Made by a program: the position numbers and the translations under genes. A stretch of 64,000 nucleotides of DNA, taken from contig CAJFCV020000006.1 of NCBI GenBank assembly GCA_904066235.2, forward strand, positions 10,230,001-10,294,000, read 5' to 3'. A model generated the notes under the pieces. It did not search any database. It had not been told where the DNA came from and saw nothing but the letters and a program-made list of their open reading frames with translations. This DNA is from Bursaphelenchus xylophilus (taxonomy: Eukaryota; Nematoda; Chromadorea; Rhabditida; Aphelenchoididae). Positions 21-59,270 of this stretch are shown here, piece after piece. Every line of letters begins with the position of its first letter. Position 1 is the stretch's first letter.

Positions 21-552
21 TGCACAGTGCAGAAAATAAAATTTGCCCGATTGCACTGTGCGGTTGAAAGAAAGCTTGAATTTTTAACGGCATGGTAATG
101 CGAGACTGATATCAAAATTACTTTTCAAAATCGACGCTTGAGGGCATCTGTAGACCTTTAAAAAATTGCCTTTGTTTCAACGCACTGTGCAAAAATTTAT
201 GAAAGCAAACCTAATGCACGGTGCAGACAAAAAGCAAAAAAAACATTCACAAATTAAAACTCATACAAAAAGAAAAACATTCAATTCAAAATTTGTAATG
301 AAAACATCTGTGCACAGTGCAATAACCAAGAAAATTTCGACTGCACGGTGCGAAAAACAAATTTTTAAGTATTGCACGGTGCGGAAAGTAAACAATTTTA
401 ATCTCTGAACGCAATTTCAATCAGAATGGTACACCAATTTTAAAGTATAAAAACGGCGCCCTAAGGGTGCATCTGCACTGTGCAAGGTCCATTTTTTGTA
501 AAGTGCACAGTGCAAAACTAAAAAACAGATTATTTCTCACAGTGCAGTAGAA
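21..552. repeat. GCACNGTGC dyad cluster
   Basis: About a dozen copies of the 9-bp dyad GCACNGTGC (A, T, G or C at the centre) lie in AT-rich sequence, for example near 21, 53, 184, 217, 311, 342, 374, 475 and 508. No coding sequence is credible here. Open frames in the cluster are artefacts of the repeated word. Confidence 0.9.
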
Positions 553-1080
553 AAAAGTGCAAAACAGATTTTTATCAGTATTAAATGATATTTTAAATGC
601 TTTGGAGTCAGTAAAAATTGTTTAAAAATATCGTTCTTGTTATTTTTATATAAAAAATTGCAAAAATTTTAATTTACTTTCACCTCTTTATTTTTAATAC
701 ATATTATCGATTAAATGTAAAGTGTAAAACTAATATTATCCGCCAAAACCTCGACTTACATTCGCCTCGTTTACGATAAACCATTTACAGACGATTAATG
801 GCCGGGTTTGGAGCTTAATGACAAAATGAAATTTGCGCTACAAACCAGCACTTGTATTCTAACTACGCACTCTCGCGTGACGTCCCAACAAAAACAATGA
901 CTATTGGTTTTTGGTAATACTAATAGTTAAGACCATTAGAGTCATCTTAAAGGCGCTTTGTCTGAAGGTATAGATAATATAGAGGAAATCCGATGCAAAA
1001 ATTAATCACAACTGTTCATGAAAGCTTCCAAGAAAGCCTTGTGCAATGAAATTACTTTATTAGCAAAAAATTTGTTGTTT
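553..1080. other. Unique AT-rich intergenic DNA
   Basis: No gene, RNA or repeat can be supported. The stretch separates two dyad clusters. A slightly less AT-rich patch near 740-870 shows no splice-bounded coding frame. Confidence 0.5.
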
Positions 1081-1491
1081 TGCACGGTGCAGAAAAACTA
1101 GAAAGGCAAAATCGACTGCACTGTGCGGAAGTTAAATTTTTTGTTGTCGCACCGTGCAGACACAACAAATTGGGAATTTTTGAATGGAATTTAAATTGCA
1201 TTAGGAAAAGGGTACTGCATTCAAAAAAGTACAGGCTTAGCGAGCCCCAACACAGTGCAATTGTCCAAAAAATTTTGACTGCACAGTGCAGAAATCAAAT
1301 TTTTGGCTATTGCGCGGTGCAGACAAAACAAATTCAAAATATTTGAATGGCATGAAAATTATGAAAGGCAATGGAAAATAAAAAACGAAAATTAGGCCAC
1401 TAAAGGCTTTTGCGCAAAGTGAAAACATCAAATTTTTATTTATCGCACCGTGCAAAATAGAAAAAACATTTTTCTTGCACAGTGCGGAGGA
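1081..1491. repeat. GCACNGTGC dyad cluster
   Basis: Around ten dyads (1082, 1119, 1148, 1279, 1315, 1446 and 1478 among them), including G-centred and T-centred forms, with one diverged copy near 1250. There is no coding content. Confidence 0.85.
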
Positions 1492-2820
1492 AAAGAGCAA
1501 AATTCCCAGAAAAAATCTGAAATTTTGATTTTTGATAAGTTTTATCAAAAATATACCTTCAATTTTTTCATATTTTATATTACACTTGACATCAAAAAAC
1601 AAGGAAATGTTAGAATTGACGACTGCATTACGCCCATTCCCTGTGACCCCAATGGTTTTTTTAATTTGGCCAGAAAAATGGATAATGAGAAGAATAATGA
1701 ATCCAGTAATACAATTGAAAAGAACGCGAGACCTTGATGTATGCGGCTAAGAATAGTCGGCGTTGTCTCGGAAAAAATGTTTAAAGAGCAGTGTCTCTAG
1801 AAGGGCGTTGAAAGTTTAAAATTCAGGGGAAAAATCTGAAAATTCAGATTTTGAATTTTTTTCTATTCAAAAAATCCGTCATCCTAAACTAAAAAAGCGA
1901 TAAAGTAGCAGAAAATTACAAAAAAAAATTTTAAAATACGCCTATTACACTTCCCACTAACATTTACTCCAAAACTTTCAAAAACCCCGCAGATTTAAAG
2001 ACGTCATCATGACGGATTTTTTGGAAATTTCCAACAAATCATTTGACTTGGCAAGTTCAAATAACGTAATTTTAGATGGTAAGACACGATTGGTCGCTCA
2101 TAAAAAGTTTTTAAAACGAGATTTTTTCATTTTCAAACCATTTTATCGCAGTGAATTCTGCATAACGCGATCTGAGATTTTGCGAGAATTCGTAGAAAAG
2201 TGTTGGCTTTGACTTTTGAAATTCAATTTATGCAAATTTTTGAAATTTAAAAAATTTTTAAATATTAAAATTTTTTTTTAAATTTCAAAAATTTGCATAA
2301 TTCTGAATTGTAAAATTCAAATTTAACCCTCCAATAGCCCCATTCAAAAACTTCAAACTCGTATTCACACCACTACAACTACATATAACCACCACTTTAC
2401 AACTCAAATTACTCCCACCTCTGTCCTCCCTTCTCAGCCTCTAATTACCATGGTGAATTTATATTGTTGACGCACAGCTTTTCATAGTCCGTCCGCTAAT
2501 CCCCCTCCGGCCTATTTTTGGGGCGGCTGATTTCGAATTTTGGAATTAACAAAAGCCGCGAGAAATTTACCTCGCAATGACAATATTTTTGAGCCAAAAA
2601 AAGAAAGAGAAACGAATGCGGAGGCACCTGAGAGTTAACAATCTCCCTGAGGGGTTTGTTAATGCTACCCAGAAAAGCGGAAATTGATCGCTTTAATGCG
2701 GAAATTTTTTTTGCAAAAAAGGAAACAATTGGAAAAAAAATCTAAAAATAAATCAACTAAAAATAATTTTAAATCGCTTTTCAGCACCTTTGCAATAAAT
2801 TTACATTTCTATTTAGGCTC
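1492..2820. other. Intergenic DNA without recognisable genes
   Basis: AT-rich sequence with short open frames that match no family and lack splice context. It contains one AT-rich hairpin (listed separately) and a CCCTGAGGG dyad near 2648. Confidence 0.5.
2215..2316. repeat. AT-rich perfect hairpin
   Basis: An inverted repeat of about 40-45 bp per arm: TTATGCAAATTTTTGAAATT on the left is mirrored by AATTTCAAAAATTTGCATAA on the right, around a short A/T loop. It could be a foldback remnant or a cruciform-prone site. Similar ATGCAAATTT words recur at 40700-41050. Confidence 0.7.
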
Positions 2821-2829
2821 TTCCGTCCG

Positions 2830-3355
2830 CACAGTGGAACAAAAAACTATTGGTTTTTTGCACCGTGCGGAAAACCGAGCCCTGTTTATTGCACAGTGCA
2901 ATGACGTCACTAAATGACCTATTTTTGAAAATTGAAGCTACTGTAGTATCCTCTTTAGTCAAAAAAGATTTTTTTTTTAATCATTGCATAATCGCACAGT
3001 GCGACAAAGAAATGCCAATTCTTGCACGGTGCAAAGGAAAAAAGCTTTATTTTAGCACTGTGCAGAGAATATATTATTAGTGCCAAGTTTGAAAAATAAT
3101 CACAATGAGCACTGTTACAAATGCCATGCTGTATTTTACCGGTTCGAATTGAGAGATATGAAAATTTAACTTTTTTTATTACCGCACTGTGCAATAATAA
3201 AAAAGCCATGTGTCGCACAGTGCAGTAGATTTTTTGTAGGAAAAATTTTAGGAAATAGTTTTAACTAGTCTCACAATATTATTTTTATTTTTCAGCTTCA
3301 ATTTATCGCGCAGTGCAACATAATTTGAGATTTTTTGATCTTCACTGTGCAATGG
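2830..3355. repeat. GCACNGTGC dyad cluster
   Basis: About ten dyads (2861, 2891, 2995, 3022, 3055, 3184, 3214, 3308 and others, some with one mismatch), interspersed with AT-rich spacers. Confidence 0.85.
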
Positions 3356-4709: not shown

Positions 4710-4794
4710 CAGATATGGTCTTGGGCACCACGAGGCCCGGCCCGATAAAAAAGGTGCACTTTGCACTGTGCAAAATCGCGCACGAAATCTCCAA

Positions 4795-4868: not shown

Positions 4869-4879
4869 TTATAGCGTAA

Positions 4880-5735: not shown

Positions 5736-5804
5736 CTCGCACTGTGCGGAAAATAGAAAAAAAAGTCCTCTGCACAGTGCAAGAAAAAACCACGAATTTT
5801 GACG

Positions 5805-6487: not shown

Positions 6488-9400
6488 TCACTTCTTTTCC
6501 AGGCGACAAATCGGGTTTTTATAGACCATATTCAGGTCAATTTTGTGGCCGAACAGCTCTCGGATGTTCGAGATGCCATACCTGATCATTGTGGGCCGTT
6601 CCAGCGACAATCCAAAGCCGGCGACATTCACATCCGGCGGTAGGCCCATGGGGAGGAGCATTTCTGGGCGGAAGAGGCCCGAGTTCCCGATTTCGACCCA
6701 TTTTTTGAGACCCTCGTGATACGCGTAGATCTCCATTGAGGGCTCGGTGTAGGGGTTGTAGGTGTGTTTGAAGCGGAGATTTTCGATTCCTGAAGGATAA
6801 TGTTTAAGAATGAAACTTTTGAAAAGGTTTAAAGCCGAAAAAAAATCAATTTTGAATTTTTTTTATATTATCCATGACAAAAACTGTTCTAAAAACCAAA
6901 AATTTTTGGCCAACCCAGAGTAAAAATTACTCTACAGCACTTTCGGCGGCTCATTCTCTCAAATAAAGACAATATTTCAAGTTTTCCTTCAAAGAATTAT
7001 ATTATCCATGGCAAAAACTGATCTAATATCTCAAAATTTTTGGCCAACCCAGAGTAAAAATACTCTACAGCGCTCTAGACGGCGCATTCTCTCAATTAAA
7101 AGCAATATTTCAAGTTTTCCTTCCAAAAATTATATTATCCATGACAAAAATTGCTCTAAAACCTGAAAATTTCCAATCAACTCATAGCAAAATTCACTCT
7201 AACCCTCTATTTACACCATCTTCTCTCTATTAACACTATTATTTCCCACTTTTGACCCAAAATTTATATTATCCATGACCAAAAAATATCCAAAACTTAC
7301 CGCATTTCCTGAAGAATTCCGTGAACAGTCCAATAACATGAGCCAAAGACAAGTTCCTTTCCGCTACGACTCCCTCAACTTGATGGAATTCCGCCAAATG
7401 CGTGGCATCCAAAGTTTCGTTCCTGAAGACTCGATCAATACTGAAAAACTTGGACGGTTTGAATCCTTCTTGGGCCAATTTGTAGAGGGTGCGTGCCGAG
7501 ACGGCGGTGGTGTGGGTTCGCAATACATTTTTCTCGGCTTCTTCGATCTTCCAGTCATATTTGTAGCCGATGGAGCCGTATCCGCCTTCCGAATGGACTT
7601 TTTTCACGCGTTCCAGGTAGTCCTCAGGGAATTGGGTGCTCTTTTCGGGGTCTGAAAAGCACAATTATAACCACAAAACTAAGTTTCAAATGGAAATTAA
7701 GAAAAAAAAAATTGTTGCACAGTGCAGACCCAAAAATTTGCGATTGCACTGTGCGAAGCAAAAAAATTTTTCGACTGCACAGTGCGGAAGACCCAAAAAA
7801 TTTTCTACTGCACAGTGCGGACCCAAAATTACCACAACAGCGCTGAGAAAAATTTGAAACAAAACACGAAAAATCTTTTAAAAAATACTATAGAGATAAT
7901 TCATACCGTATTTTACCATTTTGCAACCAACAATTTTTCGCACAGTGCAAAAAAATACTCCCTAAAATTAAAAAAATCGAATATCTCAGCCCTCAATTCC
8001 AAATAAATTACTAAAAATTTCAGCAACTAATCTCCGTCCCATCTAGGCTCACTATTAAAAATTTCACAAAAATTGGAGGCAAATTTTTTTAAAAATCTCA
8101 TTTTCAAATTTCAAAGTTCTTTCTCAAAATTCAATTTTTATCATACCCTTGAGGAAAAAGGTGTCGTGAGCATCTCGAGCGGGATGCATTTGTGGCTGGA
8201 AGAGGGCGTCAAAGTTCCAGAACGAGCTCTCCACATATCTATTCGTCTCCATTTCCGTGAATCCCATTTGGAAAAAGATTTCTCTGAATTCCGAGCGCAC
8301 CTTCAACAAGGGATGAAGATGTCCGGCAGGTGGTGGGACTCCCAGGGCTTCAAAGTTGTACTTTTTGAAGGTTTTATCCTTCCACGAGCCTGTGGCCAAC
8401 ATCTCGGCGGTGATGTCAACTTCTGGTTTTTCGAGGGTGGTAGTGAAAGCTGAGCCTTTGGACACAACCAGAGCCTTTATAACACTGAAACAGGGATTAA
8501 CAGTCAATATGGACTATATTAAACTCGATTAACAACAAAACTTTGACATTCGATATCTAAAGTAATATCAGAAAATTTTTACTATTGATTCCAAATGTCT
8601 CTACACCATCTAAAATATCACTGAAAGAAATATCTTAGGCTAAAATGGCCTTGAACACCAATATAAACACAGATTTCGCCATGAACAATATAACCTCACC
8701 TTTCACTAACCAATTTCCGTTTCTTCAGTTGATCCAAAACGGCTTGAGCAAGTTCCTCATTCTTTTTCAGGGCCAACAAAGCCTCTCTCACTTCGTCTTT
8801 AACATCCTCCACCTTCCTCACCAACTTTGGAGGAGTTGCCGATTTATCCAAGGCAATCCATTTATTGGCCAAGGCTTTGGACATTCCAATCTTTCCGAAT
8901 GAAAGATCCTACAAGTATACAGCTTAAACTATCAACTTCTTCTTGCATCTTGGCCTAAACACAGAACAATAATAAAAATTATATTACACTTACCACAATT
9001 TGTTTCTGTGGAACTCCATCGGCTCCAATCGCTTGAAAGACGCGGAATTCGTGAGATCCTTGTTCAGCAATCTCTTTTCCTTCTCCTGATAATGCAAATT
9101 GTTTGATTTGACGGTCCTTCGTGTCAATCAGCTGAAATTATATTACACTAGATGTTGACGATGAAATTTGAGAAATTTTTAATCTACATCAAAGTAAATC
9201 GTCACAAAAAGCAGTGCAAATAACTTTTCCAGTCCAGAAAATCATCGAAAACACCTAAAAACCAAGAAAAATTTAAAAATCTTACGTTTTCATGAGATAA
9301 CAACGATTTGACGGCTCCAATAATCTTATTATGGTCCACACTCAATTCCTCCGCCAATTTAGAGGTATCGAACTCTCCCACTTTATCCAGCACACTGAGT

Positions 9401-20425: not shown

Positions 20426-20449
20426 TCGACATGAAATTTCTATTTACAG

Positions 20450-20975: not shown

Positions 20976-21372
20976 TGCACAGTGCGAAATTTGGCATTTT
21001 TTTGGCACTGCACCGTGCGGTGAAAAGAGTCTTGATTTTTCGCACTGTGCAATGAAAATTGAAATCCAAAAAAGGGTTGGCGGTGAGGCTAAATGACCAA
21101 TTACCTTAGAACAGCATAATTTTTTAGAAAAAATGTCGCACAGTGCAGAAACCAGCACTTTTTTTCGACTGCACTGTGCAGTCTACGAAACTTTGGTTTT
21201 TCGCACTGTGCATTGAAAATTGAAATCCAAAAATTAGTCAGCCGTACTTCAAAGGACCCTGTTATTTACGAGGAATACAGTTTCGGCAAACAAATCTTCT
21301 GCACAGTGCAAAAACCAACATTTTATTCGACTGCACAGTGCAGTCTGCAAAATTTTGGTTTTTTGCACCGTG
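20976..21372. repeat. GCACNGTGC dyad cluster
   Basis: About ten dyads (20977, 21009, 21041, 21137, 21171, 21202, 21301, 21334 and 21366 among them). A ~160-bp arrangement is partly repeated, with GAAAATTGAAATCCAAAAA after the dyads at 21041 and 21202. Confidence 0.85.
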
Positions 21373-21814
21373 CGCTAAGAAATTAGAGTTCTATGGAAAT
21401 TCGAACGCCGTTACAGTACTCCAAACCACTTCTAACGCATTTTTCACACCCTCAAAATCGGAGTGAAAGTTCAAAAAGACCATAAATGTCGAGAGGAAAA
21501 ACCGTTTTCACTTTCTTCCCAAAAAATCTTCTTTTTTTGGTTCCGCAATCCCTTTTCCCACTTGATTTTGCAATCGGAACCCATGAGGGCATCGATGTTT
21601 CACGGTGTGAAACAATTTGAAGAGCGGTTTCTTCCGGAGAAATGGATTTTCAAATAAAGAATGGGAGGGGGTTTCTTGAATGCCTGAGGGCTTTTTGGTC
21701 GCGCAGATGGAGAAAAGAGGTCCGTTATGGGAAGACAGGTGGATTTACAATATCTTGTAAGGACGTTTTTGAAAATTTGGGGGAAATTTTTTATTTTGAA
21801 GAATTTTTTTTGAG

Positions 21815-22135
21815 TGCACAGTGCGGGAATTTTTGAAAAAAGAATTTTTGACTGCACTGAGCAAAATTAAAAAATTTTTTGTCAGCACTGTGCAAAATAA
21901 ATTTTTTTACTACACGGTGCAAAATCAAAAAAATTTTTTTTTTTTTTGACTGCACTGTGTAAAATTAAAAAAAAATTTTGACTGCACAGTGCAAAATAAA
22001 AAATTTTTTGTCAGCACTGTGCAAAATAAATTTTTTTTTACTGCACGGTGCAAAATTCAAAAAAAAAATTTTTTGACTGCACAGTGTAAAATTTAAATAA
22101 AAATTGACTGCACAGTGCGAAAGTTTTGCACGGTG
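21815..22135. repeat. GCACNGTGC dyad cluster in A/T runs
   Basis: About ten dyads or one-mismatch copies separated by TTTTTT/AAAAAA tracts, with a roughly 140-bp block (TTGACTGCAC, then TTTGTCAGCAC, then ACTGCACGGTGC) occurring twice. Confidence 0.85.
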
Positions 22136-22417
22136 CAAAAAAAAAAAAAAAATAAAAAATAAAAAAAACTCTCTTCGCCAACCTCGTGGTCTAACCAACT
22201 TTTTTTCACTTTCAAAAACAATTTTTAAGACTTTTTTGGTCGAATGATTTTGTAAACAAAGCAGATTCCTTGCAGAGATTATCTTGTAGATCAGAAGATC
22301 TTGTTTTGGTCACAGGTGATTTAAATTCCTCGTGTTTTACAGATATTTTTGTTCGAAAAGGTGACAAAAAACATGTTTTTAGTTTTTCTTTTGATTACAG
22401 TATCTTTTTTTGCACCT

Positions 22418-35639: not shown

Positions 35640-36310
35640 CTGCACTGTGCGGTCGGGAAAAATTTTTTGCACAGTGCAGTCTTCGCAAAAAAAATTTTGC
35701 ACAGTGCAAAAATCTTGAATCGCACAGTGCGGATTTTCCGAATTTTGCACAGTGCAATTTTCGGAAAAAACTTTTCGCACAGTGCAAAGATTTTTTTGAC
35801 TTGCACTGTGCGCTCGCGACAAACCTTTTTCATTTTTTGCACAGTGCAAAGATTTTTTTGCTTGCACAGTGCGCTAGCGACAAATTCCTTTGTTTTGTTT
35901 CGGCCGCACTGTGCAATGTGCAAATGAGTTTCCCACGTCGGCACCGTGCATTTGCGACAAACTTTTTTCATTTGTTCGCACAGTGCAAAAATCTTGAATC
36001 GCACAGTGCGGGTTTACCGAATGTTGCACAGTGCAGTTTTCGGAGAAAACTTTTTGCACAGTGCAAAGATTTTTTTTGGTTTGCACAGTGCGCTCGAGAC
36101 AAATTCCTTTCTTTTGTTTCTGCCGCACTGTGCAAATGGGTGTCCTTTCCCACGTCGGCACCGTGCATTTGCGACAACCTCTTTCATTTTTTTGCACTGT
36201 GCAAGGACGCTTTTTCCTTCTTCTGTCCGCACAGTGCAAAAATTTTGGAATTTTCGCCCACTGATGACTGCACGGTGCAGTTTACAAAAAGTCGATTGCA
36301 CAGTGCGAAA
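35640..36310. repeat. GCACNGTGC array, two diverging long units
   Basis: About 25 dyads. The blocks AAAAATCTTGAATCGCACAGTGCG, GCACAGTGCAAAGATTTTTTT and TTTTGTTTCKGCCGCACTGTGCA occur in the same order in 35705-35910 and 35990-36135, indicating a roughly 290-bp duplicated unit. Confidence 0.9.
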
Positions 36311-36797: not shown

Positions 36798-37500
36798 CGC
36801 ACTGTGCAAACGTCAATTTTCTCTTTTTTGATTTGCACGGTGCGGTTTTTTGAAAAATTTGTTTTGCACGGTACACTGGGACAATTTTAAAAAAGTCAAT
36901 GTAAAACTAAAATTTAGATTATATTCTCTACCGTTCAGCCAAAAATTGTCTCATTTTGTCGTTTGCACAGTGCAAAAGACACATTTCTTTTTTTCCCGCA
37001 CTGTGCAGTTTCTTTTTTAAAACCCGTTGATTGCACCGTGCAATGAGCACTTCATAAAAATTTTGACAGGGCAAATTGAAGCTCTAGAGATGTCTATCAC
37101 ACCGCAGAAAAATTTTTTGCAAATTTCCTCTCCGCACTGTGCAATGAGGATCTTTATTTTTCCGCACAGTGCAGTTTCTTTAAACTTTTGATTTCACCGT
37201 GCAGTGAGCACTTTACAAAAATTTTGAAATTGCAAGTTGAAGCTCGTGAGGTGTCTATCATAATGAAAAAAAAATTTTTCAGAATCTTATCTCCGCACTG
37301 TACAATGAATAAATTTATTTTTCCGCACAGTGCAGTTTCTTTAAACTTCTGACTGCACCGTGCAGTGAGCACTTCATAAAAATTTCGGCTGTGCAAATTG
37401 AAGCCCTTGAGATGTCTATCACAACGCAAAAAATTTTTTTTGCAAATCTCCTCTCCGCACTGTGCAATGAAGATCTTTATTTTTCCGCACAGTGCAGTCT
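36798..37500. repeat. GCACNGTGC array with ~160-bp units
   Basis: About fifteen dyads. From about 37030 three units of roughly 160 bp repeat (key positions near 37141, 37301 and 37464), with GAGCACTTCATAAAAATTT, AATTGAAGC, GATGTCTATCA and CTCCGCACTG blocks. Confidence 0.9.
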
Positions 37501-41254: not shown

Positions 41255-41335
41255 TTCCGCACCGTGCGAAAATTTTTTGGAAAACTCTGCACTGTGCAGT
41301 GACAAAAAATTTTTTCGCACAGTGCAGAATTAAAA
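41255..41335. repeat. Short GCACNGTGC cluster
   Basis: Three dyads (41260, 41288 and 41318) about 29 bp apart. Confidence 0.8.
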
Positions 41336-41645
41336 ATTTTTTTTTAAAACTTGCTTTATCGTCGCTAAAGAATTAAAATTTACTATGTATCTTTACAATA
41401 CCATTTACCATACACTGTCAAGATTGTAATTTGAAAATTTCTTCGGGTTAAATAAAAAAAAGTTTTGAAATTTTTCGATTTTTTTTTGAAATTTTTTCAA
41501 AAATATAAACTAAAAATTTGTGGAAACCCCAAAAAGTTGGTTTTTAATACATTTTTGTCATTTTGAATAAAAATAAATTCCATTTTTGGTCATTTGTTTT
41601 GAGTGTTCGGCCAGAAATCGGTCGCACCGTGCATTCCCAAAAAGA

Positions 41646-43611
41646 ATGGCCGATTTGAAAACGGCGAAAAGCTCGAGTGAGCCGAGCACGGCCAAGGAAC
41701 GACAGACTATTTCGTTTATGAGTACCAGTTCATTCGGCTCCCGACATGTGGATCATGCGTCGCCGCAGTAAGTTTAATTTTTTGCACAGTGCAGTCTAAA
41801 GTCCAATTTCTTTTTTTTCTTTTTTTTTTTTTTTAACACTCGGCAATGCAATTCTGCACAGTGCAATAGAAATTTTTTTGGTCGGAAATTTTTATTTTGC
41901 ACAGTGCAATCAAAAAAAGTTAAGCCTTTTTGCACTGTGCAATCGGCAATTCAATTCTGCACTGTGCAATCAAAAAGAAAGTTCAGTCTTTTTGCACTGT
42001 GCAATCGAAATTTTTTGGTCGGAAATTTTTATTTTGCACTGTGCAATACAATTTTTGATATCCGCACTGTGCAGTCTGAAATTGAATTCTGCACAGTGCA
42101 GTCAAAACTTCATAATTTTTTGCACTGTGCAATCGAAATTTTGGTCGGAAATTTTTATTTTTCACAGTGCAACCAAAAGCTGTTTTCCGCACAGTGCAAT
42201 CCAAATTTTTGATTTTTGCACTGTGCAGTCAGAAGTTCAATTCCACACAGTGCAGTTAAAACTTTTTTTGCACTTTGCAGTTGAAATTTTTTGGTTGAAA
42301 TTTTATTTTTGCACAGTGCAGTCCAATTTTTGATTTTCCGCACCGTGCAACCCAGGTTTTTGATTTGCGCACTGTGCAGTCAGAACTTTCTATTTTTTTG
42401 CACTGTGCAATCGAAATTTTTTGGCCGCAGATTTTGATTTTCGCACTGTGCAATCAAAAATTAAATTCTGCACAGTGCAGTCAAACCTTTCAATTTTTTG
42501 CACCGTGCAGTTGAAAATTCTTGGTCGAAATTTTATTTTTGCACAGTGCAGTCCAATTTTTGATTTTCCGCACCGTGCAACCCAAGTTTTTGATTTTCGC
42601 ACTGTGCAGTCCAAATTTTTCAGTTTCGCACAGTGCAGTCGGAAATTAAATTATGCACAGTGCAGTCAAAACTTTATAATTTTTTGCACTGTGCAATCGA
42701 AATTTTTGGTCGGAAATTTTTATTTTGCACAGTGCAATCAAAAAATGCTTTCCGCACAGTGCAATCCAGATTTTTGATTTCCGCACTGTGCAATCTAAAA
42801 ATCCCAAAAATTTCATTTCATATTTTTAGAGTCCGTTTCAACGTCTCCCTCCTTGTCCTGGCATCCATGGGAGTGATCGTAGTCCTAATCCAGTACCTGT
42901 TCTACTGCGATTCCGCCTTCACTACTCTGGTTGGGACTCTGACGGCTTTATTTATTGCATTCTTTGGCTACGAGTGGGTTTGGGTTCATTCGAATGCGTT
43001 GACGCGTCATCGGAGAGCTCACTTTGATGAAGCCAACATTCTGGAGACATACCAGCCGAGGGCGCGGACGTTGGGACATCTTTTCCAGGTAAGGTTATAT
43101 TGTAGTAGGTGATTTGGGAAAAAATGCGGAATTTGTGATAAAAATTATGAGAAATATTGGGGAAGTTGATATTGTTAGAAGCTATGAGGCCTGTAGAATC
43201 GATAAAGATCAAAATTTTTGCTTCAAGATTACTGTAATTTCAGCCAGATCCACCAACTCCGGGAATGGTAACTATCAAAGATGGCGACGCTCCCGAACGC
43301 ACCGAATCCGAAAAAGCCGCGTTCAACGCTGTTCGAGACTCTGTAAGCTTATTCCGAAAATTTTGGAGCAAAATATTCACTCTGTCTTACTGTAATTTCA
43401 GCACTACGCCAACATGTTCCAACACGCGATGCAAGTGGCCAAAGAGCAAGAAGCCATGGAAAAACAGCCCCAAACCTCGTCCGGAAGTCAGAGTGAAAGT
43501 TCCAGCACCGCCACCGCCAAACCCGCGGAGAATCAGCAGTACGAGAACATAGATAATATGCCGGATATCGCCAAAATCCCGCCTCCACCCGATGGGGAGA
43601 AAAAACTCTAG
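41646..43611 (+). CDS. Small membrane protein, possibly PP1-inhibitor-2-like
   Basis: Not assigned with confidence. Exons: 41646-41767, 42830-43088, 43244-43342 and 43402-43611, in phase, 229 residues. A Ser-rich N-terminus of about 42 residues is followed by two membrane segments (VSLLVLASMGVIVVLIQYLF and TLVGTLTALFIAFFGYEWVW), then a soluble, charged C-terminal half. The part EKAAFNAVRDSHYANMF followed by AKEQE loosely resembles the FExKRKxHYNE...LAR segment of protein phosphatase inhibitor 2, but the other inhibitor-2 motifs are not visible. Introns 2 and 3 share the acceptor TACTGTAATTTCAG. Intron 1 is 1.06 kb and almost entirely a dyad array. Confidence 0.75.
41780..42800. repeat. GCACNGTGC array filling an intron
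   Basis: About 35 dyads fill intron 1 of the membrane-protein gene. Spacers such as CAATCGAAATTTTTTGGTCGG, GGAAATTTTTATTTTGCAC and TTCTGCACAGTGCAGTC recur in order, giving duplicated multi-dyad units (compare 41930-42130 with 42380-42700). Confidence 0.95.
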
Positions 43612-43692: not shown

Positions 43693-44055
43693 TGCACTGT
43701 GTAGTTTGGTTTTTTGCACTGTGCAGTGGAAAAAAGTTAGGTGAATTATAACGCAGCGAAAACTTGGGAGGCTAAAATTAGAATGTGTATAGTGTTTTTA
43801 GGTCGTCTTTCCATAATATACGACTTCATTTTATTATTACCAAATTTTGAACGCCTAATTATGCAATCAAAATTTTTGCACTGTGCAGTGGAAAAAAGTT
43901 GATGGTTTGAAAAAGAAGAGCAATTTTTAAACTCAAATAACACTGTTTATAGTATGTTCAGAACGTACATGAATAATGAATGGCTTTATTTTATTATCAC
44001 CCAACTTTGAACGCCGCATTGTGCAGGAAAAATTTCTGCACTGTGCAAAGCAAAA
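43693..44055. repeat. Sparse GCACNGTGC cluster
   Basis: Five dyads or one-mismatch copies (43694, 43717, 43877, 44021 and 44037), with the block CACTGTGCAGTGGAAAAAAGTT present at 43718 and 43878 and TTTTATTATYACC nearby in each half. Confidence 0.7.
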
Positions 44056-46315: not shown

Positions 46316-49300
46316 CTATAAATCCGTTTCCAGAAGACCTGTTTCCTTTTTTCGCGTCGAAACCGGCACTTCGGTCCCCGGAGGCACTGCGGCTGGCTCG
46401 GGTTGGGCACTTGGGAAGGTTGTGGAAGTTGATGTTGTAGTAGGCAAAACTGGGTCAGTCGATGGCGGAGGGGCTGGCAGATCCGATGAAGAGCTACTAT
46501 CTGACTGTTTCTCGGCTTCAGCCTGCTTTAGACTCGGTTTCGGGGCAATTGCAGGCTTTGGATTGATGGGTAATATCGGATCTGCCGATTTTTCTTCATT
46601 TTCTTTGGCTGCAACCGTCGATGAAGAACTCGGGCCAACTGTTTGGTCCTCCGAGACATTCCTAGCCTCCTCCACTTTGTTTGGTACCGAATTTGACGGG
46701 GATTCCGCCTCAATTGCGGTCGATTTGCTCAGCTGAACGGGCTGCGTTCGTCTCCGCTCTGGATTTTTATTCCGCCGAGCGCATGGCGCGGAAATCGCAC
46801 CACTGTTGGAGAAGCGATCACTGCTTGTGGAGCGTCGACGGGAGACATAATCGATCACGTTTCCGGCCTCAGGCGTGGTTGGACTTATGGAGTGGTCTTG
46901 GGAGGAAAAACTGTCCAGGGATGGAAGACGGTTGCGATGGACCTGAAATGGAGTTTCGATTAGTAATTTGGAGCTCATAGGTAAGATAATAGAGGAATTT
47001 GTGTTAGTCTGAGATCAAAATTTAGGTTGAAACAGAGAAAAATTAAATTTTGACCTAAAATAAGGTCGGTTTATGACTTTTTGATGTGTTTTAGTGTTTG
47101 AAAATGATTTTACTGGCATCTGTAAGGTGGGAAACAAACTGAAAGAACTATTCAAGGCTTGTTACTGAGAAAATTTGACAAAAATAACCTTATTTTAGGT
47201 AGCTTGGACTGAAATCTTGTTGTTACTCTTATTTCTGACAGATTTCTTTGATTTTTGTTACCTAATATAACTTTAAATCCTGTAACCCACCAAATCAATT
47301 GATTTTCGCGCCCTCAACGAGTCTGTAGATCTTCTTGTCGGCTTTCCTTTGATATCCGGACTTCCCTCTTTGCTGTCCTCTCCATAGTTGTTGTAATTCG
47401 CGCCTGCTGGGGTTTGTTGAACATTCCTCATAGTCAAAGTGTACGGGATCTCGCCGTTGAGCAAGTGCAGTTTCTTGAGATCCGGGCGATCCTCGCTTTC
47501 CACCGATATTAATGTAGGGAACGGGACTTCCTTCCGTTCTTTGCCCTCGGACAGAAATGCCAGCTGATTGGCGTCGTTGAGGATGCTTTCCAACGGTTCT
47601 AGAAGCTTGGCGGCGTCGGATTTACTCGAATTCTTCTCGGTTTTGATCAAGATGAGCGTGTCCTTGTCCGAATAACTTGTACTTGTTCTTTCGGTCACCG
47701 AAAAAGTTCCACTGCTTGGTCCGGCCGTCTCGGCCAACCGCGAGCTCTGAGATTCGTCCTGTTTCACGGTGGACACACTACATTGTCCGGGCCGATCGAA
47801 GATCGCGTAGATTTTCTCGGAGATCTTCTCTGGCGCCGGTTTTCCCTTATCTAGCAAGTCCTTCGGTTTCGGCGGAACCGCCGGTTTCTCCGGCTTCACG
47901 TCCACACCCTGCGGAGTTAGCACCACATTTTGTCGAGTAATGATCTTCCCCGGCAACGGGCCGGACGGGTTGAACGGTAAACTCGGGTTGTTTATATGGC
48001 CCGATATTGTAGTAGCCGTACTGCCGGCCGGAATCGAGGCCGAGGTCGTGTTGTAGGTGGTGTGATAAGCAGCACTAGTTGAAACATGACCAGCATAGAT
48101 GGGGGAGCGCCGTTCCGCATCGATATTCGATATAAATGGGCGGAACGAGGAGTTCTCGGACTTGATCACAACCGGCCCACTGCTCGCCGCCTCCGGATCG
48201 AACGTTGATGGGCGACCGACCACAGCCCCCGCCGTTCCTCCCTCCTTCGGCTTTATGAAAATGGGCTTTCGGATCGGGGTGGGCGGAGAGTTGGAACTCA
48301 AAACGACCGGTCGAATTATCGTGCTCGTGGAAGTGGTTGATGTGACGGGAGCCGTCCCAGCGGCCGTCGAACTTGTCGTAACGTACATGTTGATGCATGT
48401 TCCAACACTCGCGACCGGCGGGGTGGGCTCTTTGGGAGGAGGGCAGTCAATCGGCACGGGGATGTTGTCCTTGCACCGTGCGAAACCCGCCCGCACCTGA
48501 CTCGCATTCATCGTTAAAATCCGGTTCGATTGACGAGCTGGCGCCGAGACTGACGATATCCGACAGTCGGAGTAGTTGCTGGAGTCGTCGTCACTCGAAT
48601 CTTTGTTGGTTGGACGGACTGGCTTGGTTGAGGCTGAAAATTGGCGGTTTTAGTGGATTTCGCGTGATTTTTTATGTTCATCTAGTTCGATTTGCTTTTA
48701 AAATAGCTTGTACTGTCTTCTAGATGGCAAAAACATCTTGAGTATTCAGGTTTATAGAGGTAGGATCAATCCAAAATAGAAGAAAAAATTTCCCGCCCCC
48801 TTTTTGGTGATTCGTTCAAAACGAAATGTCACTATCCGATAAAACTCATTTTCTTATCTTTATTCTTCCTTTTCGAGAAAACGCAATTATTTCGGGCGAG
48901 GAAAAGTGCCGATAATTTCCCGACATTTTCGAAACGGTTCAGGAAATGCTCTTGCTTGACGTGGGACCTTGTTTTAGACAGATTTTGGCCAAAACCCTTA
49001 ATTTTCTCCCAAAAATATCTAAAATAAGGTGGAAATGGTATGAAACCGTCTCCAAACTAGTCATTTAGTTTGACAAGGTTTTTAAAACTTACGTTTGACC
49101 TTTTTGACGATGACATTTCCCACTCTTTTCGTCGTAAAAGTGGTCGAATACACTCTGGGATCGGTCGCATTCGAGTAGGTTGTTGCGACGTCGGATTGAC
49201 TTGAATTCTCCTCCAACCGATAAGATCCTTCGCTGATGTTGTCCCGGCTTTGGTTTAGGAAGTTCTCTCCGCTCGCGCTCTTGCTCGGATAGGCTTTGTC

Positions 49301-52300: not shown

Positions 52301-54903
52301 GTTTTCGTTGCACACGAACTCGCCGTGGGCGAGGTCGCGGCGCAGCTGAAGGGAGAGCAGATATCGGGTGTACTCCTCCTCCAGCTCGGCCGGATTCGGG
52401 GTGTAGAACTTGACCACGAAGTAGAAACGAGCGTCGCTCTGTGCGACCGTGATTTGGCGCAGAATGGACTTGTCTTTGTCCAGCCAGCACTGAAAGTCGG
52501 GCAAGTGTAATATAAATTTGGAAATTTTGGGGTGTAAAATTAGGATGTAGGGGTTTAAAAAGCTCATAAATGGCTTTTAAAAAGCTTCTGAGATACTAAT
52601 TACGTAAAAATTAAAGATTTTTAGGACCGAAAATGCCTAGTGTAATATAAAATTTTTTTGATTAATGGTAAAATACGGCCAAAAATGCTTAGTAATACCC
52701 TTCAAAAGTCTCAAAAATAACAATAGCATCATTTTAATAATAAAAAATGATTCAAAACTTACTCGAGCACTGAAACTCGGGCAAGTGTAATATAAATTTG
52801 GAAATTTTGGGGTGTAAAATTAGGAGGTAGGGGTTTAAAAAGGTCAGAAATGGCTTTTAAAAAGCTTCTGAGATATAATTTACTTAAAAATTAAAAATTT
52901 TTAGGATCAAAAATGCCTAGTGTAATATAAAAAAATTTTGATTAATGGTAAAATACGGCTAAGAAGCATCTAAAACCCTTAGTAATACCCTTCAAAAGCC
53001 TCAAAAATAACAATAGCACCATTTTAAGGATAAAAATGATTCAAAACTTACTCGATTCCCGTAGCCATCCAAAAATTCCAGACCGAAATAGTCACTCTCC
53101 AGCAAGTTTAGATGTCTGCACACCTCATCGAATAACGCCTGGCCATTTGCACGATGCTAAAAGGCGAGAAAATTTAGGGTAAAATATGTCTGCTTAATTG
53201 TTGATTTTTGCACAGTGCGAAATTTTTCGAAAAATCTGCACTGTGCAGGAAATTTCCGAAAATTCCGCACAGTGCAAAGGAAAAAAGATTTTTTCGCACA
53301 GTGCAAAAATTATATTTTTTTTTGCACAGTGCGAGGTTTTTCGAGAAATCCGCACGGTGCGAAGTCACAAAAAAAAAATTTTTGCACAGTGCTGAAATTA
53401 CAATTTTTTCGCAAAAAATCTTTTTTGCACTGTGCAAGGAATTTCCGAAAATCCCGCACGGTGCAAAAAAAAAATGATAAAATCCGCACGGTGCAAAGTC
53501 AAAAAAAAAATTAATTTTCGCACAGTGCAAAAATTTTTTAAAAATCTGCGCTGTGCAAGGAACTACAAATTTCCGAAAATCCCGCACGGTGCAAAAAAAA
53601 AATGATAAAATCCGCACGGTGCAAAGTCAAAAAAAAAATTAATTTTCGCACAGTGCAAAAATTTTTTAAAAATCTGCGCTGTGCAAGGAACTACAAATTT
53701 CCGAAAATCCCGCACGGTGCAAAAAAATGATAAAATCCGCACGGTGCAAAGTCAAAAAAATTTTCGCACAGTGCAAAATTTTTCGAAAAATCTGCACTGT
53801 GCAAGGAACCACAAATTTCCGAAAATCCCGCACGGTGCAAAAAATAACGAAATTCGCACGGTGCAAAATTTTTTAAAAAATCTGCGCTGTGCAAGAACTT
53901 TTCGACAAGTCCGCACGGTGCAAAGTCAAAAAAATTTTCGCACAGTGCAAAATTTTTCGAAAAATCCGCACTGTGCAAGGAGCTACAAATTTCCGAAAGT
54001 CCCGCACGGTGCAAAAAATGATGAAATTCGCACGGTGCAAAATCAAAAAAAATTTGCACAGTACAGAATTTTTCGAAAAATCCGCACTGTGCAAGAACTT
54101 TTCGACAAGGCCGCACGGTGCAAAATCAAAAAAATTTTTTGCACAGTGCGAAATTTTCCGAAAAATTCGCACTGTGCAAGGAACTACAAATTTCCGAAAA
54201 TCCCGCACGGTGCAAAAAATGATGAAATTCGCACGGTGCAAAATCAAAAAAAAAATTTGCACAGTGCGAAATTTTCCGAAAAATCCGCACTGTGCAAGGA
54301 ACTATAAATTTCCGAAAATCCCGCAGGGTGCAAAAAAATTATAAAATCCGCACGGTGCAAAATCAAAAAAAAATTTGCACAGTGCAAAATTTTAAAAAAA
54401 ATCTGCACTGTGCAAGAACTTTTCGACAAGTCCGCACGGTGCAAAATCAAAAAAAATTTTCGCACAGTGCAAAATTTTTCGAAAAATTTGCACAGTGCAA
54501 TTAACTATAAATTTCCGAAAATCCCGCACGGTGCAAAAAATTCTACAATCCGCACGGTGCAAAGTCAAAAAAAAATTAATTTTCTCACAGTGCATAATTT
54601 GTCGAAAAATCTGCACAGTGCAAGAACTTTTCGACAAGGCCGCACGGTGCAAAATCAAAAAAAATTTTTGCACAGTGCAAAATTTTTCGAACAATCTGCA
54701 CAGTGCAAAGATAAAAAAGTTTCAAAAAAAGTAAAAATTCGATTAAAAACCATGCTGTAACTCACTCCCAAATGAAAAACAGCGACAGTGTCGTCGAGCA
54801 TCCGGACCTTGATGCACATCAGCTTCCCTTTCCTGGGGTCCATGCCGGGCGGGGGCACAGCGCCCACTCCTTGCGGGATTCTCGAGGCTACTGGCTTTTG
54901 CAT
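46316..54903 (-). CDS. FERM-domain protein of the FARP/FRMD7 type, no RhoGEF domains
   Basis: A cortical adaptor linking membrane proteins to the cytoskeleton. Exons (minus): 54903-54766, 53156-53052, 52489-52143, 51244-51001, 50438-50203, 49765-49369, 49309-49093, 48633-47291 and 46942-46316, in phase, 1217 residues. The FERM domain spans residues ~25-350: [88 protein letters not shown] and [24 protein letters not shown]-adjacent region follows ([35 protein letters not shown]). The remaining ~850 residues are Ser/Thr/Pro-rich and disordered, with no DH or PH domain. That agrees with human FRMD7 and nematode frm-3-like proteins rather than FARP1/2. The ATG follows an acceptor-like TTTTTATAG. 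Several introns hold tandem repeats, and one is a 1.6-kb dyad array. Confidence 0.88.
46943..47290. other. FERM-gene intron with ACCTTATTTTAGGT words
   Basis: A 348-bp intron. It contains the partial palindrome ACCTAAAATAAGGT at 47051 and ACCTTATTTTAGGT near 47190, in opposite orientations. The same word occurs at 3493, 26110 and 49020. Confidence 0.6.
48474..48482. repeat. Single exonic GCACNGTGC dyad
   Basis: GCACCGTGC lies within the large FERM-gene exon, where the minus strand encodes Ala-Arg-Cys. It is the only perfect dyad I found inside an accepted coding exon. Confidence 0.7.
49800..50170. repeat. ~41-bp tandem repeat in a FERM-gene intron
   Basis: About eight or nine copies of a unit containing TAAAATTTCACGTTTTTCAT followed by CCCTAAAGTT. 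The unit fills most of the intron between 49766 and 50202 and stops about 30 bp from the exon. Confidence 0.9.
50494..50910. repeat. GGCGAGCTGCGCCC word every ~130 bp in a FERM-gene intron
   Basis: Copies lie near 50496, 50623, 50762 and 50891. The spacers share ACAAAACTCATAAA, CAGATTTTACTC and GAGGTTATGACTAAAA blocks, so this is a ~130-bp tandem repeat with a conserved GC-rich core. Confidence 0.85.
51530..52135. repeat. ~153-bp tandem repeat in a FERM-gene intron
   Basis: Four diverged copies contain AACTTCAAAAAGTATCCATT, CCACCAAAAAATCAGCTTTT and TAGCTTGATAAGGTCTTTG. They start near 51567, 51719, 51871 and 52026. The last copy runs almost to the exon at 52143. Confidence 0.9.
52490..53045. 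repeat. ~280-bp tandem duplication in a FERM-gene intron
   Basis: The block from CACTGAAAGTCGGGCAAGTG (52489) through ACAATAGCATCATTTTAA recurs from about 52772 with few changes. The duplication includes the exon-adjacent acceptor sequence, so an inactive second copy of the acceptor (CACTGAAACTCGGGCAAG) lies inside the intron. Confidence 0.9.
53205..54715. repeat. Dense GCACNGTGC array filling a FERM-gene intron
   Basis: Nearly 50 dyads lie within the 1.6-kb intron 53157-54765. Spacers such as AATTTTTCGAAAAATC, CAAGGAACTACAAATTTCCG and AAAATCCCGCACGGTGCAAA recur in order. G-centred and A/T-centred dyads follow a regular pattern: the two ends of each AATTTTTCGAAAAATC spacer are A/T-centred, and the CCCGCACGGTGC and CCGCACGGTGC sites are G-centred. 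Confidence 0.95.
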
Positions 54904-56234: not shown

Positions 56235-56615
56235 CGCTGCACGGTGCGGAAAAGACGAAAGTAAAAATTTGCACTGTGCAAAAAAATGAAAGCGTGACTG
56301 CACGGTGCGAAAAAGGGAAAAGTAAAAATCTGCACTGTGCGCAGAAGTTTGGGGGAATTTTGCACAGTGCAAAGGAGAAAAGGACTCCGCACGGTGCAAA
56401 ATAAACCTTTTTTGGAATTTTTTGCACTGTGCAGGACATTTTGAGGACCTTGCGATAACCTTGCACTGTGCAAAAGCGACAAGATGACTGCACGGTGCGA
56501 AAAGACGAAGGTAAAAATCTGCACTGTGCAACAGATTTTTGAAAATTTGCACGGTGCAAAAGCGACAAAACTGATTGCACGGTGCGAATTTGAGAAGTTT
56601 GCACGGTGCGGGGCA
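56235..56615. repeat. GCACNGTGC array
   Basis: About fourteen dyads. The spacers (AAAAATGAAAGCGTGACTGC, AAAAGGGAAAAGTAAAAATC, AAAAGCGACAARATGACTGC) are shared with the array at 57265-57840, so the two arrays are copies interrupted by unrelated DNA. Confidence 0.9.
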
Positions 56616-57264: not shown

Positions 57265-57955
57265 GCACTGCGCAAAAAATGAAAGCGTGACTGCACCGTG
57301 CGAAAAAGGGAAAAGTAAAAATCTGCACAGTGCGCGCAAGTTTGGGGAAATTTTGCACAGTGCAAAGGAAAAAAGGGTTCCGCACGGCGCAAAATAAACG
57401 TTTTTTGGATTTTTTGCACTGTGCAGAAAATTTCAGAGACGTTGCACTGTGCAAAAGCGACAAGATGACTGCACCGTGCGGAATTTTGGCAGACTGCACT
57501 GTGCAACAGATTTTCAAAGTTTCGCACAGTGCAAAAGCGACAAAAGATTGCATGGTGCGTATTTGAGAAGTTTGCACGGTGCGGCGAGGATTGGAAAATT
57601 TGCACTGTGCAAAAAATGAAAGCGTGACTGCACGGTGCGAAAAAGGGAAAAGTCGAATCTGCACTGTGCGGAAGTTTGGGGGAAATTTTGCACAGTGCAA
57701 AAGCGACAAAACTGATTGCACGGTGCAAAAGTGACTGCACTGTGCGGAAAAAAATGAAAATCTGCACTGTGCAAAAAAAATGTCATTGCACTGTGCGAAA
57801 AAAATTGAAAGCCTGCACTGTGCGGGAATGACCAAAATTTTGCACAGCACCAAAAATAAAAAAAAATTAAAATTGAAAAAAAACCGCCAAAATTAAGAAA
57901 AAATATTTTGCACAGTGCAGAATTTTAAAATTTTGTATCCTCTGCACCGTGCAGA
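57265..57955. repeat. GCACNGTGC array
   Basis: About 24 dyads, partly duplicated internally: the block from GAAAGCGTGACTGCAC occurs at 57281 and 57619, about 338 bp apart. Related to 56235-56615. Confidence 0.9.
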
Positions 57956-58370
57956 TCACAAACGCCTCCTCGGCCGCCTTTCATAACCCTGCTCGGAAAC
58001 GAAATTTGCATCAATTTCGCGGCCCTCCAAAGACGAAGAAATATTTCTCTTTATGGCCCCAAATATTTGCCAAATGCGCGTGTCCCATCCGAAGAAATTT
58101 TGGCGGAAACCAACTTTTCCTCGGCCCCTCACCCTTAAACCCCTCAGGGGAACAGCGGGGAGAAAAAAGAGGTTTAAGGAATGTTATACACGATGTTATG
58201 AAGAGCCGCCCTTCCTTTTCGCCGCACCGAGCTTAGACGCCCCACCGCCACAAGAGCGAAATTAACGATGACATCTTGAGTAAATGAGGGGAAACGGGAT
58301 TTTTTGGACAAAGGGTTTGCAGAAAAGGGCTTGGGGGATTTCATTGAGCACAAAAATTGGGACAAAGTCA
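57956..58370. other. GC-richer intergenic DNA
   Basis: No recognised gene. It contains a CCCCTCAGGGG dyad near 58141. Confidence 0.4.
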
Positions 58371-58374
58371 GCAC

Positions 58375-59270
58375 AGGGCAAAAAAAGTAGACCTAAAAAT
58401 ATCGCACAGTGAAAAAAATGGAACTGAAAATTCCGCACAGTGCAGAAAATTAGACCTAAAAATATTGCACAGTGCAAAAAAGTAAATCTAAAAATATCGC
58501 ACAGTGCAAAAAATTAGACATAAAAATTTTGCACAGTGCAAGAAAAAGACAGTAAAAATATCGCACAGTGCAAGAAAAAGAAAGTAAAAATATTGCACAG
58601 TGAGAAAAGATTGACCTAAAAATATTGCACAGTGCAAGAAAAAGACAGTAAAAATATCGCACAGTGCAAGAAAAAGAAAGTAAAAATATTGCACAGTGCG
58701 AAAAAATTGACCTAAAAATGTCGCACAGTGCAAGAAAATCGACCTAAAAATATTGCACAGTGCAAGAAAATCAGCCTAAAAATATTGCACAGTGCCAAAA
58801 ATCGACCTAAAAATATTGCACAGTGCCAAAAATAGATCTAAAAATATCGCACAGTGCAAAAAAGAATTGCCAAAATTTTGCACAGTGCAAGAAAATCAGC
58901 CTAAAAATATTGCACAGTGCCAAAAATAGATCTAAAAATATCGCACAGTGCAAAAAATGGAACCCAAAATTTCGCACAGTGCAAAAAAGAATTGCCAAAA
59001 TTTTGCACAGTGCAAGAAAATCAACCTAAAAATATTGCACTGTGCCAAAAATAGATCTAAAAATATCGCACAGTGCAAAAAATGGAACCCAAAATTTCGC
59101 ACAGTGCAAAAAAGAATTGCCAAAATTTTGCACAGTGCAAGAAAATCAACCTAAAAATATTGCACTGTGCAAAAAAATAACTTCAAAGTTTTGCACAGTG
59201 CGAAAAATATCCAATATTTTTCTGCACTGTGCGACATTCAAGAAAAAATCGGCACAGTGCAAAATAAAAA
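58375..59270. repeat. GCACAGTGC tandem array with 32-bp period
   Basis: Around 30 dyads, almost all A-centred. From 58434 to about 58730 successive copies are mostly exactly 32 bp apart (unit GCACAGTGCA, then about 12 A-rich bases, then TAAAAATATY). From 58840 a ~125-bp unit is duplicated, with ATGGAACCCAAAATTTCGCA at about 58956 and 59081. Confidence 0.95.

What the first reader, a model, noticed from the sequence alone, without database searches (positions are those of the whole stretch)
21..59270. Window-wide family of GCACNGTGC dyad arrays
A 9-bp perfect dyad with a free centre base, usually extended to YGCACNGTGCR, occurs roughly 400 times by eye in more than twenty clusters. The dyad is conserved while the spacers drift, except where multi-dyad units were duplicated. 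Copies with intact arms but any centre base argue for selection or mutation bias acting on the dyad itself, as expected for binding sites of a dimeric or zinc-finger protein. It is not an ordinary satellite. Possible roles are chromatin organisation, silencing, meiotic pairing, or a centromere-like or eliminated DNA class.
Basis: partly seen in the sequence, partly recalled or inferred. Interest (0 to 1): 0.85.

Follow-up and report, generated by a model that had tools for sequence, protein, structure and literature searches.

The report
Conserved dyad arrays on nematode chromosomes
The pinewood nematode genome carries tens of thousands of copies of one short symmetrical DNA word, mostly about 30 bases apart in clusters towards the chromosome arms, whose letters stay fixed while the DNA around them drifts, as expected of binding sites for a still unknown protein.

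Summary
GCACNGTGC occurs 375 times in the window (shuffles: mean 0.33) and 41,616 times in the genome (reversed-pattern control: 178). Contig sizes identify the genome as Bursaphelenchus xylophilus Ka4C1 v5.0.

One-mismatch sites number 59 in the window, over all 24 variants. In 45 families of flank-homologous copies, 11 of 360 arm columns vary, against 14 of 45 centre and 236 of 1169 spacer columns. Sites elsewhere agree. Mid-spacer words treated alike decay about nine times faster.

The site is YYGCACNGTGCRR with exactly one centre base, spaced 31 ± 4 bp. Mapped samples lie on both arms of all six chromosomes, thinner in the middle, with one arm favoured on C2-C5. Two arrays searched have no full-length copy elsewhere.

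Best reading: maintained binding-site arrays for an unidentified dimeric protein acting on chromosome arms. Ordinary satellite and dispersed transposon are disfavoured. Protein and function are inferred. Meiotic pairing is a bold possibility: Clade IV nematodes are reported to lack Dmc1/Hop2/Mnd1.

The parts
22..513 (.). dyad array, 9 perfect sites
1082..1485 (.). dyad array, 6 sites
2860..3223 (.). dyad array, 7 sites
4763..4771 (.). single dyad
5739..5780 (.). dyad pair
7717..7948 (.). dyad array, 5 sites, in the intron between two exons of the PheRS alpha gene (8124-8513 and 7269-7664, minus strand)
20977..21373 (.). dyad array, 9 sites
21816..22136 (.). dyad array, 7 sites
22419..23455 (.). 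dyad array, 31 sites
24714..24782 (.). dyad array, 3 sites
25403..25411 (.). single dyad
26678..27833 (.). dyad array, 35 sites, with 140-bp and 120-bp higher-order units
   Evidence: genome search
28109..28628 (.). dyad array, 18 sites
29237..29881 (.). dyad array, 7 sites, partly in 162-bp units
30752..31464 (.). dyad array, 15 sites
32079..32708 (.). dyad array, 12 sites
33143..33667 (.). dyad array, 10 sites
34001..34923 (.). dyad array, 24 sites, in 161-bp units
   Evidence: genome search
35642..36306 (.). dyad array, 22 sites
36799..37495 (.). dyad array, 11 sites
41259..41325 (.). dyad array, 3 sites
41624..42791 (.). dyad array, 29 sites
43716..44046 (.). dyad array, 3 sites
48473..48481 (.). 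single dyad inside a 458-codon open frame (47273-48649, minus strand); may be chance
53210..54706 (.). dyad array, 45 sites
56239..56609 (.). dyad array, 13 sites; partly homologous to the next array
57293..57952 (.). dyad array, 20 sites
58435..59260 (.). dyad array, 26 sites, about 31-32 bp unit

Best explanation
The dyad YYGCACNGTGCRR is a recognition site for a dimeric, sequence-specific DNA-binding protein of Bursaphelenchus. Arrays of sites about 31 bp apart (about three helical turns) in AT-rich noncoding DNA, mostly of the chromosome arms, load the protein at high local density, and the sites are kept intact by selection on binding while the spacers drift. The most likely job is chromosome-scale: organising or marking arm chromatin, for example nuclear-periphery or heterochromatin anchoring, or meiotic homologue interactions. 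SHOWN: over-representation, arm-base-specific conservation, strict centre length, pyrimidine/purine flanks, spacing, sites on both arms of all six chromosomes with a thinner middle, no full-length copies elsewhere of the two arrays searched. INFERRED: the protein, its dimeric nature, selection as the cause, and the function.
For: 375 sites against 0.33 expected; 41,616 against 178 genome-wide. Family-level variable columns in the window: arm 11/360, centre 14/45, spacer 236/1169, Fisher p about 1e-8 and 3e-18. Replicate in 13 loci outside the window (29 kb, 199 sites, 30 families): arm 8/240, centre 6/30, spacer 98/765, p 0.0018 and 6e-6 (which redoes without an overlapping locus). Equal-treatment control: at 75% flank identity, among copies with 3 or fewer mismatches, dyad copies are perfect in 90% with 0.013 mismatches per base; mid-spacer 9-mers in 39% with 0.122. 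The bases next to the arms change almost only within their class: 14 of 15 two-state changes are transitions in the window against 46% in spacers, p 2.7e-4, and 11 of 12 in the other loci, which reads like base-class recognition. Centre length does not vary in the window apart from two possible chance cases at N6 and N7. Spacing within arrays: mean 30.9, SD 4.0, minimum 18, n 290; outside the window mean 30.0, SD 5.5, minimum 7, n 121. No dyad lies in 13 of the 14 open frames that had a Pfam match (three of the 14 score below Pfam's own cut-off; the 14th was not checked). Middle 40% of C1-C4 holds 35 of 171 mapped places, p 7e-8.
Against: No binding protein was identified and no binding, expression or polymorphism data were available. 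No second nematode species could be searched. Tens of thousands of redundant sites would need weak but effective selection on each. Genome-wide the excess of one-mismatch sites over the control (about 10,600 against 41,616 perfect) is larger than in the window, so some arrays do decay. Families were seeded on perfect dyads, which favours arm constancy; the mid-spacer control answers this only in part. Without dropping misaligned pairs the arm/centre contrast is weaker at loose thresholds: mismatch 0.27 against 0.36 at 70% flank identity, 0.09 against 0.21 at 75%, 0.012 against 0.17 at 85%. The family test covers 156 of 375 window dyads and 70 of 199 outside. The middle is significantly thin on C1, and at p about 0.04 on C3 and C5, but not on C2, C4 or C6 alone; arm enrichment may merely reflect where nematode repeats accumulate.
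Confidence: 0.6

Rival explanations
1. Self-propagating array repeat: the dyad is the target of a recombinase, nuclease or transposase-derived enzyme that duplicates units locally. Only units with an intact dyad keep duplicating, so dyads look conserved without any benefit to the worm.
For: Several arrays show higher-order units of 120-162 bp, and near-exact recent tandem copies exist (five sites at 30-bp steps at C1:14747240-14747360). Spacers of the two arrays searched are private while the dyad is shared. Some dyads also lie in a 2.36-kb tandem unit on C1 (L005 and L008 read).
Against: Units that already differ by up to 25% in their flanks still keep both arms, so conservation goes on after duplication. 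Lost units are rarely seen, and 14 of the 24 gaps of 46-80 bp hold a site with one mismatch rather than a rotted one (the other 10 hold only 3-4-mismatch matches). The flanking Y/R preference and fixed centre are equally explained by plain binding.
Confidence: 0.22
2. Ordinary minisatellite decay: recently amplified arrays that merely share an ancestral core.
For: TRF reports many arrays and some are young.
Against: Arm bases vary about four to nine times less than spacers in the same aligned copies and the centre base varies freely (14 of 45 families). The two arrays searched share with other places only short matches of 65-90% identity.
Confidence: 0.05
3. C. elegans-type meiotic pairing centres, bound by HIM-8/ZIM-like zinc fingers.
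For: Short motif in many clustered copies in a nematode. One arm holds more mapped places than the other on C2 (9 left, 21 right), C3 (9, 23), C4 (14, 4) and C5 (5, 15), each p 0.02-0.04. The recalled HIM-8 motif TTGGTCAGTGCA matches TTGCACAGTGCA at 10 of 12 positions (recalled; one search found no nematode paper with it).
Against: [quoted passage not shown] Here one dyad occurs on both arms of all six, evenly on C1 (31 left, 25 right). HIM-8/ZIM homologues are reported from Clade V (PMC8455136, passages); I saw no statement on Clade IV.
Confidence: 0.07
4. Programmed DNA elimination signals or eliminated satellite DNA.
For: Nematode elimination motifs can be short palindromes and eliminated DNA is satellite-rich (PMC13370393, sections 3, 4, 6, 36).
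Against: No site in the six left-end 10-kb pieces. Tens of thousands of sites among genes along arms, against at most a few hundred high-scoring SFE matches per species reported there. The assembly came from mixed-stage worms, so massively eliminated DNA would be under-represented (inference).
Confidence: 0.03

Closest known systems
C. elegans pairing-centre motifs (HIM-8, ZIM-1, ZIM-2, ZIM-3)
   Same: short sequence motif, many clustered copies, nematode, presumed sequence-specific protein; on C2-C5 one arm is favoured
   Different: those are 12-base motifs enriched at one chromosome end and specific to one or two chromosomes; this is one symmetric dyad found on both arms of every chromosome
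CENP-B box in primate alpha satellite (recalled)
   Same: a short protein-binding box that stays conserved inside diverging repeat DNA
   Different: no common monomer was seen here; differing spacers share only the dyad, at about 31-bp steps, dispersed over the chromosomes
matS/MatP and parS/ParB chromosome-organising palindromes of bacteria (recalled)
   Same: works like: one short palindrome repeated over a chromosome domain and bound by a dimer
   Different: eukaryote, dense arrays, about 41,600 copies; no relationship claimed
Periodic An/Tn clusters (PATCs) of Caenorhabditis
   Same: non-coding, AT-rich, phased DNA; in C. elegans embedded in introns and UTRs
   Different: PATCs have no fixed GC-rich dyad; they are defined by about 10-bp A/T periodicity (recalled)
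SFE motifs of programmed DNA elimination (Oscheius, Caenorhabditis)
   Same: short motifs, palindromic in Oscheius
   Different: SFEs mark single break sites; their logos are in figures not held, so sequence similarity was not testable

Membership tests
Ordinary satellite/minisatellite | copies descend from one unit and all positions of the unit diverge alike | tested here: not met
   arm 11/360, spacer 236/1169, centre 14/45 variable family columns; replicate; mid-spacer control
Dispersed transposon or MITE | near full-length copies of the same element at many loci | tested here: not met
   two of the 28 groups (1301 and 931 bp queries) searched in the whole genome: only the self locus is full-length; 29 and 61 other short partial matches at 65-90% identity. 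The tool scores only its best candidates and skips very common words, so counts are lower bounds
C. [quoted passage not shown]
   sites on both arms of all six; left/right 31/25, 9/21, 9/23, 14/4, 5/15, 4/6 for C1-C6. All three lists are complete for C1-C4; C5 rests on two lists, C6 on one
C. elegans-type pairing centre | different motif per chromosome or chromosome pair | tested here: not met
   one dyad on all six chromosomes
C. elegans-type pairing centre | HIM-8/ZIM zinc-finger protein encoded in the genome | not tested
   no trusted query sequence on hand; literature reports homologues in Clade V
Maintained protein-binding site array | recognition bases constrained relative to adjacent bases | tested here: met
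Maintained protein-binding site array | a protein binds the site | not testable with these tools
   needs pull-down or in vitro binding
PDE elimination signal (SFE) | located at telomere-addition sites | tested here: inconclusive
   0 dyads in six left-end 10-kb pieces, but only two of those six begin at or near telomere repeats, right ends were not sampled, and no somatic/germline read data are held
PATC | about 10-bp phased A/T clusters | tested here: inconclusive
   periodicity is strong in the window outside arrays; array spacing 31 bp is about three periods, but phase relation and gene association were not tested

The most novel reading that the evidence does not exclude
The dyad arrays are the cis half of a previously unseen, motif-guided chromosome pairing or arm-tethering system. 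Clade IV nematodes, reported to lack Dmc1/Hop2/Mnd1, would use one protein reading one palindrome on all chromosomes, with one arm dominant on several, to bring homologues, or arms and nuclear envelope, together; identity would come from each array's private pattern of site number and spacing.
Probability: 0.12. Interest if true: 0.93.

Novelty: new variant of a known kind. Interest (0 to 1): 0.74.

Why it matters
A single 9-13 bp word stands perfect at about 41,600 places and is conserved where it could be tested; I know of few animal genomes with so dense a maintained motif (recalled, not searched). If a protein reads it, this gives a direct handle on how nematode chromosomes organise their arms. 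It also bears on how Clade IV nematodes pair homologues without Dmc1 (PMC8455136, passages). A probe made from the array may be enough to fish out the protein, so an open question becomes a short experiment.

Tried and rejected
Whole-dyad inversion as the cause of centre A/T swaps: flanks keep their identity rather than swapping. The A/T excess at the centre in the window (8 of 14, p 0.0018) was not replicated outside it (1 of 5). Helical phasing of dyads beyond the single 31-bp mode: the spacing histogram has one main peak. One search failed by a division error and was rewritten. SL2 RNA search for clade was negative but rang in no control, so uninformative. Rfam and tRNA scans of the window were empty. 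Literal motif and topic searches of the open-access library showed no report of this motif in the rows listed (one search listed 20 of 176 papers, 15 of 31; titles and abstract starts only). Subscription papers were not searched, so absence from print is not shown.

MENDED ON RECHECK: one search used a locus (L004) that overlaps L005 and so counted three sites twice; one search redoes it without L004 and changes little. Reporting the left/right asymmetry on C2-C5 made me raise the pairing-centre rival from 0.05 to 0.07 and the novel case from 0.10 to 0.12. The end pieces sampled are left ends only.
Full report
WHERE. The window is C6:10,230,001-10,294,000 of a 78,253,340-base genome in 8 contigs. 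Six contigs measure 12.1-15.1 Mb; two are about 15 kb. Two of the six large contigs (C1, C4) and the small C7 begin with or very near TTAGGC-type telomere repeats. The largest contig (15,101,617), one of 12,794,883 and one of 12,140,115 match the maximum, N50 and N90 printed for Bursaphelenchus xylophilus Ka4C1 v5.0, 78.3 Mb (PMC7561696, whole text). I take that as the organism; that paper counts 11 sequences, the copy held here 8. Earlier repeat annotation called the assembly about 22% repetitive, mostly without transposon features (PMC3164644, passages).

THE SITE. 375 perfect GCACNGTGC sites stand in the window against a shuffle mean of 0.33. 363 are flanked Y...R, and 306 fit YYGCACNGTGCRR. 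The separation of the arms is exactly one base: 375 at N1 against 0 at N0 and N2-N5 and 1 each at N6 and N7. No other one-base-centre dyad apart from two A/T runs passes 17 copies. Within arrays the start-to-start distance is 30.9 +/- 4.0 bp (290 distances of 45 bp or less; minimum 18). Spacers are 27.5% G+C. The window has 28 groups, 3 of them single sites. None of the 375 sites lies in the 13 Pfam-matched open frames checked (a 14th, 40161-40556, was left out of that check). The group at 7717-7948 sits in the intron between two consecutive PheRS alpha exons.

GENOME. 41,616 perfect sites against 178 for the pattern read backwards. Exactly one mismatch: 18,654 against 8,060. Adjacent pairs of the 13-bp form 14-24 bp apart: 8,220 against 0. 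Rare one-sided extensions of the dyad give maps: 69 of 69 places for one, and the first 100 of 149 and 100 of 144 for two others. On C1-C4, where all three lists are complete, 171 places remain after merging those within 5 kb. 35 of the 171 (20%) fall in the middle 40% of the chromosome (binomial p 7e-8 against 40%). On C1, the only chromosome with a complete control list, the middle holds 8 of 64 dyad places against 9 of 23 reversed-pattern places, Fisher p 0.012. Chromosome by chromosome (left 30%, middle 40%, right 30%): C1 31/8/25, C2 9/10/21, C3 9/10/23, C4 14/7/4, C5 5/5/15, C6 4/2/6 (C5 from two lists, C6 from one). So sites occur on both arms of all six, the middle is clearly thin on C1 and weakly or not significantly so elsewhere, and on C2-C5 one arm holds more (p 0.02-0.04 each, uncorrected). 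Of 18 further pieces totalling 108 kb, 3 held any dyad (11 in all), and 6 of 6 left-end 10-kb pieces held none; right ends were not sampled.

IS THE DYAD MAINTAINED? I compared copies that are homologous in their flanks on both sides. In the window, 156 perfect dyads fall into 45 such families; 12 imperfect members join them (11 with one mismatch, 1 with two). Variable family columns: arms 11 of 360, centre 14 of 45, spacers 236 of 1169 (Fisher 1e-8 and 3e-18). In 13 loci from C1, C3, C4, C5 and the small contig C8 (29 kb, 199 sites, 30 families): arms 8 of 240, centre 6 of 30, spacers 98 of 765 (p 0.0018 and 6e-6). I chose most of those loci because they held sites. As a control, 9-mers from the middle of spacers were treated like dyads. 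At 75% flank identity, dyad partners had 0/1/2/3 arm mismatches in 470/52/2/0 cases and mid-spacer partners in 119/98/64/24. The remaining cases, 92 of 616 dyad and 142 of 447 mid-spacer, had 4-8 mismatches; I judge most of them misaligned and left them out of the means. Means are 0.013 against 0.122 mismatches per base. Without that exclusion the contrast shrinks at loose thresholds (arm 0.27 and centre 0.36 at 70% flank identity; 0.012 and 0.17 at 85%). The centre base, boxed in by nearly invariant arms, changes as freely as a spacer base, which speaks against a local mutation cold spot. The bases next to the arms change within pyrimidine or purine class in 14 of 15 and 11 of 12 two-state columns, against 46% transitions in window spacers.

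NOT COPIES OF ONE ELEMENT. Two arrays used as DNA queries found only themselves at full length. The other 29 and 61 matches are short (at most about 370 bp), 65-90% identical and on both strands, as expected from shared dyads at similar spacing. I infer that arrays expand locally and share the dyad but not the spacer; 26 of the 28 groups were not searched this way. A minority of dyads also ride in larger repeats, such as a 2.36-kb tandem unit on C1 (two copies read).

HOW IT MOST LIKELY WORKS. Shown: a symmetric, base-class-flanked, fixed-length word is kept while neighbours drift. Inferred: a dimer reads it, because both half-sites and the one-base centre are fixed. Inferred: sites at about three helical turns let many dimers load side by side. 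Inferred: the target is the chromosome rather than a gene, because sites lie on all chromosomes in noncoding DNA. The rival that I cannot exclude is selfish local amplification by an enzyme that reads the dyad; it must act unit by unit and continuously to keep arms intact in copies with up to 25% flank divergence.

AGAINST KNOWN SYSTEMS. C. [quoted passage not shown] Chromosome specificity is not met here; one-endedness is not met on C1 and undecided on C2-C5. Elimination motifs in Caenorhabditis mark single telomere-addition sites (PMC13370393, sections 3, 4, 6 and 36); I found nothing pointing to that, without a direct test. Dmc1, Mnd1 and Hop2 are reported lost in all sequenced Clade IV members, and HIM-8/ZIM homologues are reported from many Clade V genomes (PMC8455136, passages). 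I did not test these genes in this genome. Bursaphelenchus is placed in Clade IV from my own knowledge. This makes a motif-based pairing system a legitimate, if unlikely, candidate. PATCs are said to be largely absent outside Caenorhabditis (PMC6468775, passages), yet the window shows a strong 10-bp A/T phase outside the arrays.

VERDICT. The identity of the binder and the function are open.

Noticed in passing
window, 43,406 bp outside arrays and listed tandem repeats: AAA and TTT recur with about 10-bp phase (peaks near 10, 21, 31, 42 and 51 bp; about 1.35-2.2 times expectation), a PATC-like signal. It is weaker in other arm loci and irregular in central loci. PATCs are described as largely absent outside Caenorhabditis (PMC6468775, passages).
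   Followed up: partly
12495-14255: Long inverted repeat: 615-nt arms 98% complementary around 531 nt that hold an inner inverted pair (122 nt, 93%); foldback-element-like. Each arm holds nearly the same 109-codon open frame.
   Followed up: partly
61566-62393; 49824-50172; 51542-52135: Unrelated tandem repeats: a 20-bp unit (AAAAGTCGTATTTTAGCGGG), a 40-bp unit and a 154-bp unit.
   Followed up: no
L005, L008 (C1 about 99-104 kb): 2.36-kb tandem unit carrying three well-separated dyads per copy, intact in both copies read although flanking bases differ.
   Followed up: partly
L016 (first 10 kb of contig C8, 14.5 kb): Small unplaced contig with 60 dyads in 10 kb, also holding translated repeats of another tandem family.
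   Followed up: no
C1:2731481/2731612, C1:11929249/11929380, C1:13480213/13480344, C2:9226522/9226653: Four pairs of the same two dyad variants exactly 131 bp apart: probably a dispersed repeat carrying two dyads.
   Followed up: no
6488-9840, 10144-11376, 16826-17935, 38619-40556, 45188-45493, 50992-52576: Genes recognised from open frames: PheRS alpha, CNNM/CBS transporter, ubiquitin hydrolase, Frag1/DRAM, RRM protein, FERM protein. The stretch 7949-20976, which holds the CNNM and hydrolase frames, has no dyad.
   Followed up: partly
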